Shown here: positions 6,782 to 14,152 of the stretch, one piece after another
Numbering within the stretch: the first letter of the stretch is position 1
Layout of the letters: every line of letters starts with the position of its first letter
Assembly: GCF_001937445.1 (NCBI RefSeq)
Contig: NZ_MSKS01000006.1
Location: forward strand, 1 to 64,000
Reading direction: 5' to 3'
DNA length: 64,000 bases
Origin: Actinomyces oris
GTDB lineage: Bacteria > Actinomycetota > Actinomycetes > Actinomycetales > Actinomycetaceae
Program-made: the position numbers and the translations under genes
The notes under the pieces: generated by a model
Told to the model about the DNA's origin: nothing
What the model saw: the letters and a program-made list of their open reading frames with translations, nothing else
Database searches by the model: none

Positions 6782-8233
6782 ATGACCCAGTCCACCGTCA
6801 ACAGCGACGCCACCAACCAGACAGACGTCCCGGTCGAGGAGGTCGACCTTCTCGTCGTCGGAGGCGGCAAGGCCGGCAAGTCCCTGGCGATGCTGCGCGC
6901 CAAGGCCGGCGACAAGGTCGTCATGGTGGAGCGGGACAAGGTGGGCGGCACCTGCATCAACGTCGCCTGCATCCCCACCAAGACCCTCATCTCCGCCGCC
7001 CGCGTCCTCCATGAGGTCCAGGGCTCGCAGGCCTACGGCGTCATCCTGCCCGAGCAGGACGGCGGCGCCGACGCCCTGGCCCAGGCCCGCATCGAGCTGG
7101 CCGCCTTCCGCGCCCGCAAGGAGACCGTCGTGGGTGGCATGGTGGCCGCCCACGAGAAGATGTTCCCCGCCTCCGGCATGGACTTCGTCAAGGGCACCGC
7201 CCGCTTCGTGGGGGAGCGCACCGTCGAGATCGCCCTGAATGACGGCGGCCTGCGGCGCGTCCGCGGCGCCAAGGTCCTCATCAACACCGGCACCACGCCG
7301 TCGGTCCCCCCGATCGAGGGCCTGGCCGACGTGCGCTACTGGACCAGTGAGGACCTGCTCACCCTGCCCGAGCTGCCCAGTAGCCTCATCGTCCTGGGCG
7401 GCGGGGTCATCGGCGTCGAGATGGCCTCCCTCATGGGGCTCCTCGGTGTCCCGGTCACCATCGTCCACGCCGGGGAGCACATCCTGGACCGCGAGGACGA
7501 GGACGTCGCCGCTGAGGTGACCGCAGGCCTGGAGGCCCTGGGAGTCACGGTCCTGACCGGTGCGCGCGCCTCGAAGGTCGCCGCCGCGGCCGACGGGAAG
7601 GGCGTCGTCGTCACCACCGCCGACGGGCACGAGGTGAGCGGCTCCCACCTGCTCGTCGCCCTGGGACGCACCCCCGTCACCGCCGGCCTCGGCCTGGAGG
7701 CCGTGGGCGTGGAGCTGACCGAGCGCGGCTTCGTGCGCGTCGACGACCACCTGCGCACCACCGCCGAGAACGTCTACGCCGCCGGTGACGTGGCCGGAAC
7801 GCCCCAGTTCACCCACGCCTCCTGGAACGACTTCCGCGTCCTGCGCGACCTCTTCGCCGGCAAGGAGGCCTCCACCACCGGGCGCCTCATCCCGTGGGCC
7901 GTCTTCACCACGCCCGAGCTCGGGCACGTGGGTTTGAGCGAGGCCGAGGCCCGCGAGGCCGGCTACGAGGTGCGCGTCGCCAAGACCCCGGCGGCGGCCG
8001 TCCCGCGCGCCAAGACCCTGGGCCGCACCGAGGGATTCTTCAAGGTCATCATCGACGCCCGCACCGACCTCATCCTGGGGGCCGCCATCATCGGCGCCGA
8101 GGCCAGCGAGGTCGTCACCAGCATCCAGATGGCGATGCTGGGTGACCTGACGTGGCAGCAGGTGCGCGACGCCGTCATCACCCACCCCACCATGAGCGAG
8201 GGACTCAACATCGTCCTGGACTCCCTGGGCTGA
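6782..8233 (+). CDS. Class I pyridine nucleotide-disulfide oxidoreductase, RclA/mercuric-reductase-like
   Basis: A 483-residue flavoprotein. It has an FAD-binding VVGGGKAGKS near residue 24, the redox-active pair Cys58/Cys63 in GGTCINVACIPTK, an NAD(P)H-binding LGGGVIGVEMAS, a second FAD motif NVYAAGDVAG, and the C-terminal interface motif THPTMSE that supplies His-Glu. The CINVACIPTK form is closer to RclA and mercuric-reductase-like proteins than to dihydrolipoamide dehydrogenase (CLNVGCIPSK). No lipoyl or 2-oxoacid dehydrogenase gene is near, and there is no mer-type N-terminal metal-binding domain. A role in thiol, copper or hypochlorite stress is inferred. GAAGGAG lies before the ATG. 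Could also be a mycothione or other disulfide reductase. Confidence 0.8.
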   Translation: MTQSTVNSDATNQTDVPVEEVDLLVVGGGKAGKSLAMLRAKAGDKVVMVERDKVGGTCINVACIPTKTLISAARVLHEVQGSQAYGVILPEQDGGADALAQARIELAAFRARKETVVGGMVAAHEKMFPASGMDFVKGTARFVGERTVEIALNDGGLRRVRGAKVLINTGTTPSVPPIEGLADVRYWTSEDLLTLPELPSSLIVLGGGVIGVEMASLMGLLGVPVTIVHAGEHILDREDEDVAAEVTAGLEALGVTVLTGARASKVAAAADGKGVVVTTADGHEVSGSHLLVALGRTPVTAGLGLEAVGVELTERGFVRVDDHLRTTAENVYAAGDVAGTPQFTHASWNDFRVLRDLFAGKEASTTGRLIPWAVFTTPELGHVGLSEAEAREAGYEVRVAKTPAAAVPRAKTLGRTEGFFKVIIDARTDLILGAAIIGAEASEVVTSIQMAMLGDLTWQQVRDAVITHPTMSEGLNIVLDSLG

Positions 8234-8287: not shown

Positions 8288-8870
8288 GTACCCCCAGGTT
8301 CTCGACGCGCTCGGCCCCCGGCAGCGCCACCAGCAGCGCCCCGGGCACCAGGAGCTTGGAGTGGCGCACGCCCGAGCCGATGAGCACCGTGGCTCGGTCC
8401 GCCACGGCGCCGTCGATGAAGAGGCGCCAGTCCTCGGGCAGGCCGACCGGGGTGATCCCGCCGTACTCCATGCCGCTCATCTCCACGGCCCGCTCCACCG
8501 GCAGGAACGAGGCCTTGCGCACGTCAATGCGCTTCTTGACGACGTGGTTGACGTCGGCGAAGTCGGTGGCACGCACGACGCAGGCGGCGATGCGCTCCTG
8601 GCCGGTGCGCTTACCGGCCACGAGTACGCAGTTCCCGGTCGCCTCAGGATCCAGGGAGTAGTGCGCGTTGAGGGCGTCGGTGTCGGAGTGGGACGGGTTA
8701 ATGGGCACCACCTGTGCCTGACGCGCCAGGCCCGCGCCCTCGGGCGAGGCCGCCTCCAGCGCCCGCAGCGCGGCGGCCACGGGCTCAGCGAGCAGGTCGG
8801 TACGCTCCAGCGCCGGCTGCCAGCCGATCTCCGCGGCGAAGACCTCAGCCGGGTCACGCAGCTCAGTCAT
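8277..8870 (-). CDS. YbaK/EbsC-type aminoacyl-tRNA deacylase
   Basis: A 197-residue protein of the prolyl-tRNA-editing-like superfamily, which hydrolyses mischarged tRNA in trans. Visible family features are the GTALNAHYS-like strand, the central VKKRIDVRKASFLPVERAVEMSGMEYGGITPVGLP block with the conserved Lys and GGITP(V)GLP loop, and the late IGSGVRHSKLLVPG segment. The substrate (Cys-, Ala- or Ser-charged tRNA) cannot be assigned. AAGGA precedes the ATG. The GNAT gene upstream on the same strand is 6 bases away, so they form a two-gene operon. Confidence 0.88.
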   Translation of the reverse strand: MTELRDPAEVFAAEIGWQPALERTDLLAEPVAAALRALEAASPEGAGLARQAQVVPINPSHSDTDALNAHYSLDPEATGNCVLVAGKRTGQERIAACVVRATDFADVNHVVKKRIDVRKASFLPVERAVEMSGMEYGGITPVGLPEDWRLFIDGAVADRATVLIGSGVRHSKLLVPGALLVALPGAERVENLGVRPA

Positions 8871-8876
8871 TCCTTC

Positions 8877-9530
8877 TCATCCTTTCGACGACGTCGAGCG
8901 CCTCTCGATGCGTTCCACCAGACGGGTCCTGACCCCGGGCCATTGCTGCGGGGTGATGGAGAACATGGCCGTGTCGCGTGGGCGCCCCTCCTCGCCGGGT
9001 GCCAGGGAGGGCTGCCAGGCGTGCAGGACCCCCTCGAAGGTCGCCCCCAGGGCCGCGATCGCGCCGCGAGCCACCTGGTTACGCGCGTCGGTCTTGATGT
9101 CCACGCGGTCCACGCCCCACTCCTCAAAAGCCTGCGTGAACAGCAGGAGCTTGGCGGCCGGGTTGATGGCGGTGCCGCGAACAGTGGGGGAGAGCCAGGA
9201 GGAGCCGACCTCGACGGCGAAGAGCCTCCCGTCCGGCATCCACCGGGGCGTCAAGTAGGCGGTATGCCCGACGACGCGGCCGGTAGCGAGCTCCACCTGG
9301 GCGAACGGTGCGTAGGTGCCCGTGTCCCGACGGGCCAGGCTACGAGCCACGTAGTCCCCGACCGTCCCCGGTGTCGGCACCGTGGCGAAGGGGCTGGTCG
9401 CGGCACCCTCGGCGGCCAGCTGCAGTCCCGGCACGTGCTCGGGTGTCAGCGGCTCCAGATGCACGATGCCACCGGCCAGTACGCCACAGGTGAGGACGGG
9501 GGAAGGGGCATGCGACTCGGTAGTACTCAT
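8877..9530 (-). CDS. GNAT-family N-acetyltransferase (RimJ/RimL type)
   Basis: A 217-residue acetyl-CoA-dependent transferase. The fold shows HLEPLTPEHVPGL (beta-1/alpha-1), the central VVGHTAYLTPR strand, the VEVGSSWLSPTVRGTAINPAAKLLL region that replaces the acetyl-CoA loop, and a final DTAMFSITPQQWPGVRTRL as in RimL-like N-terminal or small-molecule acetyltransferases. Its substrate is unknown. It is first in a two-gene operon with the ybaK-like gene. A small perfect inverted repeat CATGC-CTCAA-GCATG overlaps the start codon (9528-9542). Confidence 0.82.
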   Translation of the reverse strand: MSTTESHAPSPVLTCGVLAGGIVHLEPLTPEHVPGLQLAAEGAATSPFATVPTPGTVGDYVARSLARRDTGTYAPFAQVELATGRVVGHTAYLTPRWMPDGRLFAVEVGSSWLSPTVRGTAINPAAKLLLFTQAFEEWGVDRVDIKTDARNQVARGAIAALGATFEGVLHAWQPSLAPGEEGRPRDTAMFSITPQQWPGVRTRLVERIERRSTSSKG

Positions 9531-9571
9531 GCCTCAAGCATGGCAGCCGGAGCACGGACGTCGTCGGGATG

Positions 9572-9615
9572 CCTCAGCATGTGGTCTCATTGTCCTCGTG
9601 CTGTACGTCATCTTC
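9572..9615 (+). repeat. Left copy of 44-bp direct repeat (trmL 5' end)
   Basis: This stretch matches 13668-13711 at 42 of 44 positions; the two differences are T/C changes. It comprises 26 bases upstream of a GTG plus the first 18 coding bases of trmL. Together the two copies bracket a 4.1-kb block with foreign-looking base composition at its left end. Confidence 0.9.
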
Positions 9616-9624
9616 GAATCTTGA
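9598..9624 (+). pseudogene. Truncated 5' fragment of trmL
   Basis: From the GTG at 9598 the frame reads M-L-Y-V-I-F-E-S and stops. The intact trmL at 13694 begins M-L-H-V-I-F-F-E-P. The similarity ends at the border of the repeat, as expected if DNA entered inside the start of trmL and the gene was rebuilt at the other end. Confidence 0.7.
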
Positions 9625-9806
9625 CTACACGTCAAGTGTTGAGAATCGTACTTTTGATACGTAAAGTATATCATATGGTGGGATAAATTACTGTGTTACG
9701 ATACTTTTCACTATAGTCGACGTCGTCACTTGGGTTGCATATGGCGTGATCTTGACCTATCTCCGAGTGGCTTCGTTTGCGTGAGGGGAAGGGGGTGAAT
9801 TTACGT
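9616..9806 (+). promoter_or_regulatory. AT-rich control region with several inverted repeats
   Basis: No gene is supported here. CTTGAC-TACAC-GTCAAG (9620-9636) is a perfect inverted repeat just past the repeat border, overlapping ACAC-GTCAA-GTGT. Further on, TACTTT/AAAGTA half-sites occur at 9649-9654, 9663-9668 and 9702-9707, in alternating orientation. They look like operator half-sites for a dimeric regulator controlling the small ORF and TPR gene. Candidate -10 elements in this AT-rich DNA are too many to choose one. Confidence 0.45.
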
Positions 9807-9911
9807 ATGAGGAAGGCTGAAGAAATCGTCAACAAGCTCGAGGATGACAAGGCGCGAGTGTTTGCTGGCATGATGATGGGATGGAATCACTGCGCGCAGT
9901 CGCCGCAGTGA
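9807..9911 (+). CDS. Small peptide (34 aa), possible signal or exported peptide
   Basis: The ORF starts at an ATG preceded by a purine-rich GAAGGGGGTG about 9 bases upstream, a better ribosome site than most in this region. The first 19 residues are charged and helical in character (MRKAEEIVNKLEDDKARVF). The last 13 follow Ala-Gly and are uncharged, containing three Met, one Trp and a single Cys (GWNHCAQ). Leader-then-core organisation, position 67 bases before a TPR-protein gene and linkage to an ABC exporter suggest a precursor peptide. No modifying enzyme or peptidase is present. It could alternatively be a chance ORF; the codon bias is not informative at this length. Confidence 0.45.
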   Translation: MRKAEEIVNKLEDDKARVFAGMMMGWNHCAQSPQ

Positions 9912-9978
9912 TGTTGGATGACGCACGCCTTCATGCACATGAATGACCGCCGAAAACGTCGGAGATGCGGGGTAGAGT

Positions 9979-11130
9979 ATGAGAATTTCGAACATTCACG
10001 ATCATTTAAATGAGTTAAATTCTTGTTTGAGTGGTCGTCCCGTATCTCCGGCGTTCCCTGAGAGGTTACGCGTGCTATGGAGCGTACTCGACAATAAAGC
10101 AGTCCAGTTGGAGAGGTCTGTAGGCGCCCCCTATTATGTGACAGATATGGGTGTCAGACTATTTAGTGACCCAAGTGTGTTTTACGGCGCACACCTAAAT
10201 CATGCAAACATCGAACCGATTTCGAGATCTGCTCTTGAAGAATTTGTGTATCGATCTGATATTGCTGATTTAAAGCATAAAATTGATGCAGTCATTCTAT
10301 TCTTTGGCGACTATGAGGCTGTATGTTGTGTGCTCAGTAAACGCTCCGCGGAGATACTTCGATCTGATGACTATGAATTGTTGATATACTGTGGGGTGGT
10401 TTATGGTGCATGTGGTTACGGAGAAGCGATAACATATTTTGATGCGGCTGAACGCGTCGCACATACTCCAACAAGAGCTTACGCTGCGGCGCACCGTTCG
10501 GCTGCGTTTGAGGTAAAGAAACTTTCGACGCCCGATAAGGGGCTACAACGTTTGAGTGTTGCTGGTGAACGGTATGTGTGTTCGAATAATTTTCGACGAA
10601 AATTAGATCAGGCGTTGATGTATAATCTTATGGCTCTTGGGTATCTTAAACTGAAGGATCCTCAATCTGTGAAGTTCATGGAAAAAGCGCGCGAGTGCGT
10701 GGATTCATCATGCGTAAGTCGCGAGCATTTTGATGCAGACACATGGTCAATGGCGGGAAGATATCGAAGTCAGATAGCAATCAATCAAGCGCAACTACGA
10801 GTGGCATCAGGTAGACCTCGCGACGCTTTGGAGATTCTGAAGAAAAATATTGAATTCATTTACAAAGAATCGTACGACTATTTTCCTGAAGCATTGGCTG
10901 AATGTTGCTATGTTATGTACCTAAATGGGGAGTATGATGCTGCGCTTGAGGTTGGGCAAGATGCATTTTGGCGATTTCAACAAATTGGGTCTTTAAGTGC
11001 CATGAAGTCGGTTCGTGAAATTATAGTCTCATGTTATTTTAAACTAGGGTCAAAATATAAGGCTGAGAGAGTGGCTGAAATTATTGATCGTGATCCTTTG
11101 GGAGTGGAAGGGCTCCATGGTATTACTTAA
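9979..11130 (+). CDS. TPR-repeat protein, possible RRNPP-like regulator
   Basis: A 383-residue protein built largely of helical hairpins of TPR character. Examples are LLIYCGVVYGACGYGEAITYF, ALMYNLMALGYLKLKDPQSV, AINQAQLRVASGRPRDALEIL and CYVMYLNGEYDAALEVG, spread over about residues 120-370. The first 110 residues (FPERLRVLWSVLDN and a following helical stretch to ISRSALEEFVYRS) could be a degenerate version of the XRE-type helix-turn-helix that precedes TPRs in actinobacterial regulators, but no confident HTH is seen. Base composition is clearly AT-rich, unlike every neighbour, which indicates transfer. Its 3' end overlaps the ABC ATPase start by 14 bases, so expression is coupled. Confidence 0.7.
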   Translation: MRISNIHDHLNELNSCLSGRPVSPAFPERLRVLWSVLDNKAVQLERSVGAPYYVTDMGVRLFSDPSVFYGAHLNHANIEPISRSALEEFVYRSDIADLKHKIDAVILFFGDYEAVCCVLSKRSAEILRSDDYELLIYCGVVYGACGYGEAITYFDAAERVAHTPTRAYAAAHRSAAFEVKKLSTPDKGLQRLSVAGERYVCSNNFRRKLDQALMYNLMALGYLKLKDPQSVKFMEKARECVDSSCVSREHFDADTWSMAGRYRSQIAINQAQLRVASGRPRDALEILKKNIEFIYKESYDYFPEALAECCYVMYLNGEYDAALEVGQDAFWRFQQIGSLSAMKSVREIIVSCYFKLGSKYKAERVAEIIDRDPLGVEGLHGIT

Positions 11131-12112
11131 TGAGGATTTGCTGCTGCGCGCCTCCCACCTGGTTCGCTCCTTCGGGAGAAAGGATAAAACCTTCGTCGCC
11201 GTGGAGGATGTGTCCCTGGACGTCGGGGCGGGGCAGGTCCATGGTCTGCTGGGGCCCAACGGTGCCGGTAAGACGACGACGGTGCGGATGTGCGCCACGC
11301 TGCTGGCTCCGACGTCGGGTGAGGTCTGGGTCGATGGCATCGACGCGGTGCGCCATCCGGAGCGGGCCAGGTCCCGGCTGGGCCTGGTCCTGGGTGGTGA
11401 GCTGGGGTTCTACCCGCGGGCTACGGCACGCGACAACCTGCTGTTCTTCGCAGACATTCAGGGCCTTGACGCCCGACGGCGACACAGCGCGGTCATGGAC
11501 GCCCTGGAGCGTGTGGGGCTGGCCGAGGCGGCGTCCCGCAAGACGGGCGAGCTGTCTCGAGGGATGCGGCAGCGTCTGCACCTGGCCCGGGCGCTGCTCG
11601 GGTCGCCGGCTCTCCTGCTGCTGGATGAGCCCACCACCGGCTTGGACCCGGACGTGGCGCTGCAGGTACGCGATCTGGTGCGTGAGCTGGCGCAGCGGGG
11701 AACGGGAGTGCTATTGACCTCGCACTCGATGCCGGAGGTCGAGGAGCTGGCCGACATCATCTCGGTGATCGGGGCGGGCCGGATCGTCGTGCGCGGCGGC
11801 GTGGGGGACGTGTCCGCCTTGGCCGGGGTGAGTGCCACCACGACTTTCACGTTACCGGCCCGCCACGGGGGCGCCGTCGAGGCGCTTCGCAGCGGTCTGG
11901 GTTCGCCGGCGACGGTGAAACAGCGCGCCTCCTCGGCCCGGTGGGCCGTGACGGTCTACTGGGCTACCGAGGCTGCCGGCACTACCGACGCCGACGAGCG
12001 GGTTCGCCAGGTCCTAGGCAAGGCCGGTGCGGGTGCGCCGTCGGACCTGCTGACGCGGCCGGCGTCCCTGGAGGAGGCCTATCTGGCCCTGGCCGACAGG
12101 CTCGCCCGATGA
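11117..12112 (+). CDS. ABC transporter ATP-binding protein (drug/peptide export type)
   Basis: A 331-residue ATPase with Walker A GPNGAGKTTT, the Q-loop region (here LGLVLGGELGFYPRATARDNL), signature LSRGMRQR (a variant of LSGGQ), Walker B LLLLDEPTTGLD and the switch His in LTSHS. The domain after residue 220 is the DrrA/CcmA-type C-terminal extension ending LEEAYLAL. The ATG at 11117 has GGAAGG just upstream. An ATG 11 codons earlier is possible but would extend the overlap. The gene heads a translationally coupled ATPase-permease-permease cassette (4-base then 1-base overlaps). High GC contrasts with the AT-rich gene before it. Confidence 0.9.
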   Translation: MVLLNEDLLLRASHLVRSFGRKDKTFVAVEDVSLDVGAGQVHGLLGPNGAGKTTTVRMCATLLAPTSGEVWVDGIDAVRHPERARSRLGLVLGGELGFYPRATARDNLLFFADIQGLDARRRHSAVMDALERVGLAEAASRKTGELSRGMRQRLHLARALLGSPALLLLDEPTTGLDPDVALQVRDLVRELAQRGTGVLLTSHSMPEVEELADIISVIGAGRIVVRGGVGDVSALAGVSATTTFTLPARHGGAVEALRSGLGSPATVKQRASSARWAVTVYWATEAAGTTDADERVRQVLGKAGAGAPSDLLTRPASLEEAYLALADRLAR

Positions 12113-12867
12113 GGCGTCAGCTGAGGATGACGGCTTTTCACGTCCGCCAGTTCGTGTCGGTTCCCTACTTCATCCAGCTCATGGTCATGACCACGACTGC
12201 CACCACGCTGGTGCAGTTCTTGGCGGCCTCGGCCTGGGGTGGGATCACCCCGACGCAGGGCTGGGTGCGCGGGGGCGTCGTCGGGATGTGGACGACGACG
12301 ACCTGCGCGGCGGGGATCATCGGTTTTGAACGGCACAAGGGCACGCTCGTCCATCTGGTCATGGCTCCGGTGGGGGCGCTTAGGTCGTTGGCGGCCGTGG
12401 TGTGCGCGGCGGCGTCCTTCGGGCTGGCGGCCTTCCCTGTGGCGTGGTGCACGTGGGCACTGCTGTCGGCGTCGGTGTCCTTCACAGGCCCGGAGTGGGG
12501 GATCTGGGTGCGCCTGGCTCTGGGCGCCGTCATGCTGCTGGCTGGGTGCCTGGCCCTCAGCTTGGTCATCGCGGCGCTGTTCGTGCTCACCCCCAACGCG
12601 ATTCAGTACGAGGGGCTGCTGCTGGTACCGGTATTCGTCGCCTCTGGCATCGTGTTCACCTCGACGACGCCGCCCGTCTGGCTGGCTGTGGCGAGTCGGT
12701 TCCTGCCGTTGTCGGTGCCCTTCGAGCTGCTGCTGGGCCGGGCGACGTCGGCAGTGGTGCTGGGCGCTTGGCTGGTGTGCACAGCCGCGTGGCTGGGGCT
12801 TGCCGCCTTCCTCGGCCGGCGGGCGCTGCGGCTGGCGACACGGACCGGCACCCTGGAGGTGGTCTGA
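12109..12867 (+). CDS. ABC-2 type transporter permease
   Basis: A 252-residue integral membrane protein with about six hydrophobic segments and a short N-terminal amphipathic helix (MRRQLRMTAFHVRQF), as in ABC-2 export permeases of the DrrB type. The start overlaps the ATPase stop as ATGA. The motif region GFERHKGTLVHLVMAPVG corresponds to the conserved E-R-G-T/L-P cytoplasmic loop of ABC-2 proteins. It probably pairs with the next permease as a heterodimeric channel. Confidence 0.85.
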   Translation: MRRQLRMTAFHVRQFVSVPYFIQLMVMTTTATTLVQFLAASAWGGITPTQGWVRGGVVGMWTTTTCAAGIIGFERHKGTLVHLVMAPVGALRSLAAVVCAAASFGLAAFPVAWCTWALLSASVSFTGPEWGIWVRLALGAVMLLAGCLALSLVIAALFVLTPNAIQYEGLLLVPVFVASGIVFTSTTPPVWLAVASRFLPLSVPFELLLGRATSAVVLGAWLVCTAAWLGLAAFLGRRALRLATRTGTLEVV

Positions 12868-13649
12868 TGCGCGCCCGGGCTCTGGCCTTCGCCCACCGGT
12901 TCTCCTCAGGGGTGCGTGTCTCGTGGGCCTCGTCGACGGCCTTCGCGACCCTGGGCACGGCCGTGGTCACGCTGCTGGTGCTGCCGCTGCTGGACGTACT
13001 CTTCGATGTCCTCATGGGCTCGGACCTCTCCGCGCCAGACCTGGTGCGCACCGGATACGCAGCGGCCCTGGTGGCACTGGCTGTCTCGGTGGCCTCCGGA
13101 GTGGTGGGCACCGTGGCCACGGACCGGATGCTGGGCGTCTTCCAGGAGGTCCATACCCGCAGGCGCCTCGACGTCGCCTACTGGCTGTCCGTCGCCGTCG
13201 TGCCGGCGCTCCTGGCCGCCTCGACCGCCATCGTCGCGATCGGCGTCGTCTTCGCGCTCTCACCGCTGCACGACGTTGGAGCGCTGGGGCGTGTCATCAC
13301 ACTGGCAGCACCGACCATCGTGTGCGGGCTGCTCATGGGGATCATGGCCGCCGGTGTCGGAGTCAACCTGCCCGATCCCTATCTGGGTGCCACGATCATC
13401 GCCACGTTCCTGCCGCTGCTGACCGGCGTCATCGTACCGCTCGAGCAGTGCCCTACCTGGTTGCAGGCTCTGGCCCACCTGGTTCCGCTCAGCGGCACCG
13501 TGACGGTCCTAGACGCACCGGCAGCCGCCGTTCCGGCCCTGCTGGGCCGCGACCTCGCGGTCGCCGCCGTATGGGCCGGGATCGGGCTGGCCGTCACCCG
13601 TCGTGCCGTCACCCGACTCCGTCAGGGCCAACGCACCGACATCATCTGA
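12867..13649 (+). CDS. Second ABC-2 type transporter permease
   Basis: A 260-residue membrane protein with about six hydrophobic segments. VATDRMLGVFQEVHTRRRLDVAYW corresponds to the conserved ABC-2 loop and LSGTVTVLDA to the C-terminal loop. The start ATG shares one base with the previous stop (TGATG). It completes the export cassette of the island. The substrate is unknown; the linked small ORF makes peptide export or peptide resistance worth considering. Confidence 0.85.
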   Translation: MRARALAFAHRFSSGVRVSWASSTAFATLGTAVVTLLVLPLLDVLFDVLMGSDLSAPDLVRTGYAAALVALAVSVASGVVGTVATDRMLGVFQEVHTRRRLDVAYWLSVAVVPALLAASTAIVAIGVVFALSPLHDVGALGRVITLAAPTIVCGLLMGIMAAGVGVNLPDPYLGATIIATFLPLLTGVIVPLEQCPTWLQALAHLVPLSGTVTVLDAPAAAVPALLGRDLAVAAVWAGIGLAVTRRAVTRLRQGQRTDII

Positions 13650-13667
13650 GTCTGAGGAGGAGGTCTC

Positions 13668-13711
13668 CCTCAGCATGTGGTCTCATTGTCCCCGTGCTGC
13701 ACGTCATCTTC
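13668..13711 (+). repeat. Right copy of 44-bp direct repeat (trmL 5' end)
   Basis: Matches 9572-9615 at 42 of 44 positions. It begins 18 bases after the last permease gene and runs 18 bases into intact trmL. Confidence 0.9.
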
Positions 13712-14152
13712 TTTGAGCCGCGCATCCCGGGCAACACCGGGGCGGCGATCCGCCTGAGCGCCAACACCGGCTCCATGCTCCACCTCGTGGCCCCCCTGTT
13801 CGACATGGACGACGCCAAGCTGCGTCGCGCCGGCCTGGACTACCACGACCTGGCCAACACGCGCGTCCACGCCACCTGGCAGGAGTGCCTGGATCAGATC
13901 CCCGGGCGTATCTTCGCCTTCACCTCCCACACCGAGCGCCTCTACACTCAGGTCGACTGGAGCGGCGACGACGCCCTCCTCTTCGGCCCCGAGCCCACCG
14001 GTCTGCCCCAGGAGATCCTCGACCACCCGCGGGTGAGTGCCCACCTGCGCATCCCCATGGTAGAGGGCAACCGCTCCCTCAACCTGGCCAACTCCGCCGC
14101 CATCGGCCTGTACGAGGCCTGGCGGTCCCTGGGCTTCGTCGGCGGAGCCTGA
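13694..14152 (+). CDS. trmL: tRNA (cytidine/uridine-2'-O-)-methyltransferase, SpoU/TrmH (TrmL) family
   Basis: This 152-residue minimal SPOUT enzyme methylates the wobble ribose of tRNA(Leu) isoacceptors in its family. It shows motif 1 EPRIPGNTGAAIR, motif 2 ALLFGPEPTGLP and motif 3 LRIPMVEGNRSLNLANSAAIGLYEAWR, which form the SAM-binding trefoil knot. Length agrees with TrmL. The GTG start at 13694 lies inside the 44-bp repeat, and no close Shine-Dalgarno is present. The gene now sits 44 bases behind the island permease, so its original promoter has probably been separated from it. A trmL fragment remains at 9598-9624. Confidence 0.92.
   Translation: MLHVIFFEPRIPGNTGAAIRLSANTGSMLHLVAPLFDMDDAKLRRAGLDYHDLANTRVHATWQECLDQIPGRIFAFTSHTERLYTQVDWSGDDALLFGPEPTGLPQEILDHPRVSAHLRIPMVEGNRSLNLANSAAIGLYEAWRSLGFVGGA

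What the first reader, a model, noticed from the sequence alone, without database searches (positions are those of the whole stretch)
9572..13711. 4.1-kb island bracketed by a duplicated 5' end of trmL
The 44 bases at 9572-9615 recur at 13668-13711 with two T/C differences. Each copy includes 26 bases upstream and the first 18 coding bases of trmL. The left copy is a dead-end fragment (M-L-Y-V-I-F-E-S-stop); the right copy starts the intact gene. This is what remains when DNA enters within the start of a gene and rebuilds it. No recombinase is inside. Use of the 5' end of trmL as an integration site would be unusual; 3' ends of RNA genes are the common targets.
Basis: partly seen in the sequence, partly recalled or inferred. 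Interest (0 to 1): 0.78.

Follow-up and report, generated by a model that had tools for sequence, protein, structure and literature searches.

The report
Peptide-transporter cassette inserted at trmL start
In a few Actinomyces species a 4-kb block encoding a tiny peptide, its likely partner protein and a membrane pump sits at the very start of a tRNA-modifying gene, with a short copy of that start left on the far side, so the gene stays intact; the entry is real, and the peptide system it carries looks undescribed.

Summary
The 44-bp repeat (9572-9615, 13668-13711, 42/44 identical) is real. A conserved motif from it occurs in 18 of 213 family genomes, always at trmL: once in 13, twice in 5, and those five are exactly the island carriers. 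The empty arrangement also occurs in more distant species (G004, G032), so the island is the derived state; no host bases were lost. 'Hotspot' does not: all five carry the same cassette, those copies form one clade (100/100) and resemble each other at the right junction. On flank trees the carriers fall in at least three places among empty species, so transfer or loss followed. In one carrier the left copy is 258 bp of trmL plus 34 bp of the next gene, identical to the right side; this mildly favours homologous insertion-duplication over a lost integrase. Entry at a 5' end has a precedent (dusA islands, PMC4482086).

The cargo is the newer part: a missed 34-aa peptide gene (9807-9911), a TPR-fold protein and a DrrA-like ATPase with two permeases. 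In 49 genomes the peptide is found only beside this cassette. Function is inferred: a peptide signal or bacteriocin with its exporter or immunity pump.

The parts
8877..9530 (-). GNAT acetyltransferase, left neighbour of the insertion
   Evidence: Pfam PF13302 E 1.9e-7; adjacent to trmL in nine of the uninterrupted loci read
9572..9615 (+). left copy of the 44-bp repeat (copy of the trmL start region)
   Evidence: 42/44 to 13668-13711
9598..9624 (+). dead-end reading frame MLYVIFES left by the copied trmL start
   Evidence: read directly
9620..9636 (+). perfect inverted repeat CTTGAC-N5-GTCAAG just inside the left end; operator or chance, untested
   Evidence: read directly; the same string is in G019 and G020
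9639..9667 (+). promoter-like site TTGAGA-17-TAAAGT, possible promoter of the cassette
   Evidence: one of 4 sites found in 9500-13800 against 1.4 expected; weak
9807..9911 (+). 34-aa peptide MRKAEEIVNKLEDDKARVFAGMMMGWNHCAQSPQ, purine-rich ribosome-binding-like stretch in front
   Evidence: family of 7; leave-one-out profiles rank each left-out member above every untrained frame shown; only beside the cassette in 49 genomes
9979..11130 (+). 383-aa TPR-superhelix protein, 44% G+C against 69-72% for the neighbouring genes
   Evidence: no Pfam or NCBIfam family; AlphaFold2 pLDDT 80.4; TPR folds in PDB; G+C
11117..12112 (+). ABC ATPase, DrrA-like
   Evidence: PF00005 E 1.2e-30; TIGR01188 221.4 bits, below its cut-off of 312.45
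12109..12867 (+). ABC-2 permease 1
   Evidence: PF01061 E 8.8e-8
12867..13649 (+). ABC-2 permease 2
   Evidence: PF01061 E 3.5e-10
13668..13711 (+). right copy of the 44-bp repeat
13694..14152 (+). intact trmL
   Evidence: PF00588 E 4.1e-29; TIGR00185 139.5 bits, below its cut-off of 190.6; DNA match in 49 of 49 genus genomes

Best explanation
A five-gene cassette (short peptide, TPR protein, ABC ATPase, two ABC-2 permeases) came to lie between the divergent genes GNAT and trmL, exactly at the start of trmL, with a second copy of the trmL start. The right-hand copy belongs to an intact trmL and the left-hand copy stays beside GNAT, so no host base was lost (shown by comparison with empty sites). 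The trmL location most likely arose once (one cassette clade). Most likely the cassette arrived on DNA that already carried trmL sequence on its right side and entered by homologous single crossover (insertion-duplication); the redundant left trmL copy then eroded to the 44 bp seen here (inferred). Two direct copies can recombine and remove the island without a scar, which, with transfer between species, would explain the scattered distribution (inferred). The cargo probably works as a peptide system: the peptide is exported or tolerated through the ABC transporter, and the TPR protein binds peptide inside the cell as receptor or regulator (inferred from operon, fold and co-occurrence).
For: Motif in 18 of 213 family genomes, one copy in 13, two in 5, and the 5 are the island carriers. 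Empty sites read in 11 oriented loci plus 2 without GNAT; G004 and G032, which group outside on both flank trees, are empty. The flank trees put G030 with empty G039 and G045 with empty G035 (all starred), away from the window. The five trmL-located cassettes are one clade, 100/100, and have similar GAGGAGG-containing bases between perm2 and the right copy (by eye). In G045 the left copy is 258 bp of trmL and 34 bp of the SDR gene, both 100% identical to the right side (259 of 260 over a slightly longer stretch), longer than the repeat of the other four. Peptide: 6 whole and 2 truncated in 49 genomes, all at the cassette; 5 of 5 largely complete TPR genes in the genus have it upstream, and so does G507 of another family, whose TPR match has one stop. 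perm2 was found in 14 of 49 genomes, a largely complete TPR in 5, TPR remnants in 3, as expected if the pump is useful alone.
Against: G045 could be a later repair or template-switch event, not a relic: its two copies are too alike for an old duplication unless gene conversion kept them so. No circular form was seen or looked for. One gain followed by about six losses (my count on the left-flank tree) is not excluded: synonymous divergence of the three transporter genes between lineages (0.40-0.48) is like that of four flanking genes (0.19-0.58). The TPR gene is far more diverged (dS 1.0 window to G030, no value obtainable to G045), so it has either evolved faster or been replaced. The right-flank tree is poorly resolved (6 of 13 inner branches open) and does not hold window, G019 and G020 together. 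A site-by-site scan for donor/native switches gave a mosaic with no clear junction. Peptide secretion, binding and activity are untested; the TPR fold matches LGN better than Rap or NprR.
Confidence: 0.5

Rival explanations
1. Site-specific integration as in dusA islands: a tyrosine recombinase acting in trans, or since lost, recombined a short site in the trmL start with one on the element, which carried a replacement 5' end.
For: Insertion without loss and a 41-45 bp repeat in four genomes; a 19-bp core unchanged in both copies of all five carriers (exact-match search); published precedent at the 5' end of dusA with 21-bp semi-conserved attachment sequences and island-derived 5' ends (PMC4482086).
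Against: No recombinase in the window island, and the other four islands align to the same cassette; the duplicate in G045 is 258 bp plus 34 bp of the next gene; only one cargo type; the cassette occurs elsewhere in 9 genomes without a direct repeat of this kind within 3.5 kb.
Confidence: 0.3
2. One insertion in the common ancestor of the oris/naeslundii group, vertical inheritance, and repeated scarless loss by recombination between the two repeats (compatible with either mode of entry).
For: Transporter-gene synonymous divergence is close to that of the flanks; one cassette clade; direct repeats give a ready route of loss.
Against: Needs about six losses by my count on the left-flank tree, against three changes by parsimony. 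With only three carrier lineages the cassette tree cannot be tested well against the host tree.
Confidence: 0.4
3. The left copy is kept because it serves GNAT (or the cassette) as promoter; the repeat is then a functional duplicate rather than a scar.
For: The 19-bp core AGCATGTGGTCTCATTGTC is unchanged in all five left copies, while the changes in the left copies lie outside it; the distance to GNAT is about the same as in empty sites.
Against: Few changes, so weak statistics; the core was also the search string, which biases the count; it occurs where GNAT is absent (G011, G038), which ties it to trmL; a separate promoter-like site lies inside the island.
Confidence: 0.3
4. The cargo is an ordinary drug-efflux or bacteriocin-immunity transporter and the peptide-TPR pair is an unrelated passenger.
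For: DrrA-like ATPase and two permeases; the transporter genes persist without TPR or peptide in several genomes.
Against: Overlapping TPR, ABC and permease genes, constant order, and peptide and TPR found only at this cassette in the 49 genus genomes.
Confidence: 0.25

Closest known systems
dusA-specific genomic islands (PMC4482086; abstract, passages and one section seen)
   Same: Entry in the 5' end of a tRNA-modifying enzyme gene; direct repeats; the island side supplies a new 5' end and the old one is left as a remnant.
   Different: Those encode a dedicated integrase and were shown to excise; here no integrase, one 4-kb cargo, and in one genome a duplicate of nearly 300 bp.
RRNPP(A) peptide-receptor systems (Rap-Phr, NprR, PlcR, Rgg)
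LanFEG/BcrAB/DrrAB-type ABC-2 exporters (grouping recalled)
   Same: One ATPase with two ABC-2 permeases; the DrrA and lantibiotic-protection ATPase models match.
   Different: The matches listed are below their curated cut-offs.
Actifensin bacteriocin loci of Actinomyces (PMC6989792, passages seen)
   Same: Small peptide with ABC transporter genes in Actinomyces.
   Different: Actifensin has a 32-aa leader and defensin-like, cysteine-rich form, with other operon genes; these peptides share no conserved cysteine; the words TPR and tetratricopeptide do not occur in its main text.

Membership tests
dusA-type 5'-end genomic islands | insertion in the 5' end of a tRNA-modifying gene with a restored start | tested here: met
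   empty sites and two-copy sites compared; gene is trmL, not dusA
dusA-type 5'-end genomic islands | dusA-family integrase encoded in the island | tested here: not met
   no such gene among the frames of 9616-13667 that were examined; the other four carriers align to the same cassette
dusA-type 5'-end genomic islands | excision as a circle and reformed empty site | not testable with these tools
   needs PCR or reads
RRNPP(A) systems | TPR-superhelix receptor | tested here: met
   AlphaFold2 model, pLDDT 80.4; TPR matches; a shared fold alone shows no function
RRNPP(A) systems | adjacent small peptide gene | tested here: met
   that it is a propeptide is not shown
RRNPP(A) systems | N-terminal HTH DNA-binding domain or Rap-type effector bundle | tested here: inconclusive
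   no Pfam family; residues 43-63 modelled at pLDDT below 50
RRNPP(A) systems | secreted and re-imported mature peptide binding the TPR protein | not testable with these tools
   experiment needed
LanFEG lantibiotic-immunity transporters | ATPase above the TIGR03740 cut-off | tested here: not met
   152 bits against 309.75
DrrA drug-resistance ATPases | ATPase above the TIGR01188 cut-off | tested here: not met
   221.4 bits against 312.45

The most novel reading that the evidence does not exclude
A peptide-communication or peptide-weapon system of a new kind in Actinomycetota (33-37-aa peptide with an invariant W followed by N/A and H/R, a TPR partner without recognised HTH, and a dedicated ABC-2 exporter) that spreads between Actinomyces species without a recombinase, using a carried copy of the trmL start as a homology handle that also keeps the host gene intact.
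Probability: 0.22. Interest if true: 0.75.

Novelty: new variant of a known kind. Interest (0 to 1): 0.5.

Why it matters
It gives a clean two-state locus (empty or filled) in Actinomyces, several of them oral species, in which entry, erosion and loss of a small island without a recombinase can be studied. It also uncovers a conserved peptide gene with a TPR protein and transporter in a phylum where, as one paper puts it, communication signals are typically small molecules made by enzymes (PMC10075063, passage seen).

Tried and rejected
Hotspot with varied cargo at trmL: not supported, 5 of 5 carriers hold the same cassette. A different insert at the same junction in G012 and G016, where GNAT lies about 1.9 kb from trmL: rejected, the gap holds a gene whose translation resembles the one at 6782-8233 of the window (by eye), and there is no motif. 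The motif as a GNAT promoter only: rejected, G011 and G038 have it without GNAT. Repeats like this around the nine cassettes elsewhere: within 3.5 kb on each side, 8 of 9 gave no left-right match and one (G037) gave a 25-bp inverted match. An active insertion sequence behind the G045 arrangement: the transposase-like scrap has no second copy in G045 and none in the five other genomes searched, and no Pfam match; calling it a transposase is by eye. Plasmid or phage relatives of the TPR protein: none at E 1e-5 in either collection. Defence system: PADLOC matches only the ATPase, to many ATPase models. Donor/native switch points in the flanks: mosaic, inconclusive. The ABC frame was wrong in the scripts (start 11130 instead of 11117), so the ABC identities and the ABC dN/dS are void; one search replaces them. 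The flank trees carry warnings: long branches (G042 in both, G008 in the right one), and in the left tree G008 falls inside the group although I had named it outgroup. The cassette tree has three open forks, warns of long rows, and its named outgroup is not one group. Left out of the trees: G002, G003, G010, G025, G047, which were fetched but have no GNAT match beside trmL, and the genus members that I saw only in search tables. Literature: no paper in the held open-access library has trmL, genomic island and direct repeat together, or trmL, integrase and attachment site, or Actinomyces, tetratricopeptide, peptide pheromone and ABC transporter.
Full report
Observation. Against the whole own genome, 9500-9700 matches only itself and the right copy.

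Is it an insertion? trmL was found in 49 of 49 genus genomes searched. The same search showed a second copy of the trmL start in window, G019, G020 and G030, and a 272-bp piece in G045. With the motif AGCATGTGGTCTCATTGTCNC (one mismatch allowed), 18 of 213 family genomes match, all in this genus and all at trmL: 13 have one copy and 5 have two. The five are the genomes with the cassette between GNAT and trmL. I read the single-copy sites in 11 oriented loci (G021 and G035 keep only a GNAT remnant) and in G011 and G038, which lack GNAT. In eight of the nine empty loci with a whole GNAT, GNAT and trmL are 66-68 bp apart (82 in G004, where the match begins at residue 7). In the carriers both flanks are kept and the insert is added together with one repeat. 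G004 and G032, which group outside on both flank trees, are empty, so insertion is the derived state.

One event or several? Trees of up to 7 kb on the left and 1.4 kb on the right put G030 with empty G039 and G045 with empty G035 on starred branches. Window, G019 and G020 are one starred group on the left tree only; the right tree is poorly resolved. At least three changes are forced on both. The cassettes at trmL nevertheless form one clade with 100/100 support against nine cassettes located elsewhere, in the order G045, G030, then window with G019 and G020. All five have GAGGAGG-containing bases between the end of perm2 and the right copy (by eye). So the trmL location most likely arose once, and transfer between species, or about six losses, made the scattered pattern. 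Synonymous divergence between the three lineages is 0.40-0.48 for the three transporter genes and 0.19-0.58 for four flanking genes, which fits an old insertion and does not decide between the two. The TPR gene is much more diverged (dS 1.0 between window and G030; no value could be computed for G045). A scan for donor/native switch points was a mosaic.

How did it enter? No recombinase is present in the window's island, and the other four islands align to the same cassette. In G045, the first branch of the cassette tree, the left copy is 258 bp of trmL and then 34 bp of the downstream SDR gene, both 100% identical to the right side (259 of 260, 99.6% over 261 and 95% over 41 in the looser alignment), followed by a transposase-like scrap. 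This looks like a left-hand trmL-SDR block that has since been deleted down, as expected from insertion-duplication by homologous recombination. It could also be a later repair event, because the identity is higher than an old duplicate should show. The alternative is the published dusA mode: islands that enter the 5' end of a tRNA-modifying gene and supply a new 5' end, with two 21-bp semi-conserved attachment sequences in 94 islands (PMC4482086; abstract, passages and one section seen). That mode uses an integrase, which is missing here. So entry at a 5' end is, as far as I recall, less common than at tRNA 3' ends, but it is known.

The cassette is not bound to trmL. Nine of 49 genomes have its transporter genes elsewhere. 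G045 also has a second, partly deleted copy, inverted, about 5 kb upstream next to an aconitase-like gene (named by eye), 99.8% identical over 918 bp and 92-98% over two further pieces; its sister G035 keeps a scrap at the same place.

What is the cargo? In front of the TPR gene lies a 34-aa frame (9807-9911) with a ribosome-binding-like stretch. Similar peptides were found in six more loci: G030, G045, G028, G033, G008, and G507 of another family. Leave-one-out profile tests against 4131 small frames of 15 loci put every left-out peptide above all untrained frames, with E from 2e-17 to 0.026; the other frames had E of 0.89 or worse. In 49 whole genomes the profile finds 6 complete and 2 truncated peptides, all at the cassette (the six complete ones are in the profile, so this shows specificity, not discovery). 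The tryptophan is invariant in 7 of 7, followed by N or A and then H or R. A largely complete TPR gene occurs in 5 of 49 genomes and remnants in 3; all 5 have the peptide upstream, and so does G507, whose TPR match has one stop inside. G008 has peptide without TPR. In G019 and G020 the front of the peptide and most of the TPR gene are deleted while ABC, perm1 and perm2 align over their full length. That pattern fits a transporter that is useful alone, for example as immunity or efflux, and a peptide-TPR pair that is the costly part. This is inference. One elsewhere-located cassette, G033, has a stop inside the perm2 match.

Verdict. The hotspot is not supported. The mode of entry is open, with homologous insertion-duplication slightly favoured. 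The most interesting part is the conserved peptide-TPR-ABC operon, for which I found no description in the searches made (no papers, 10 of 24 listed and two opened for passages, 10 of 11 listed and one opened for passages).

Noticed in passing
L076 5263-6890: Second, inverted, partly deleted cassette copy in G045 next to an aconitase-like gene, ABC part 99.8% identical to the trmL copy; G035 keeps a scrap at the same place (L072 about 8840-8956).
   Followed up: partly
L074 10953-12805 (as fetched): At the same aconitase-hydrolase junction G030 carries about 1.85 kb where the window has about 0.15 kb: a second alpha/beta-hydrolase-like gene and a MarR-like regulator (by eye). Different cargo at this junction in G030 and G045 makes it a better hotspot candidate than trmL.
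   Followed up: partly
L066 4976-5228 and L067 4938-5271 (as fetched, minus strand): In G019 and G020 the front of the peptide and most of the TPR gene are deleted while the ABC genes stay.
   Followed up: partly
L121 579-2907, L124 820-3097: Distant TPR relatives in another family of the order are followed by an overlapping frame that looks like a LuxR-type response regulator.
   Followed up: no
L120 1198-3626: Peptide-TPR-ABC arrangement in a genome of another family (G507), with one stop inside the TPR match.
   Followed up: partly
9620-9636: Perfect inverted repeat CTTGAC-N5-GTCAAG just inside the left end of the island, possible operator.
   Followed up: no
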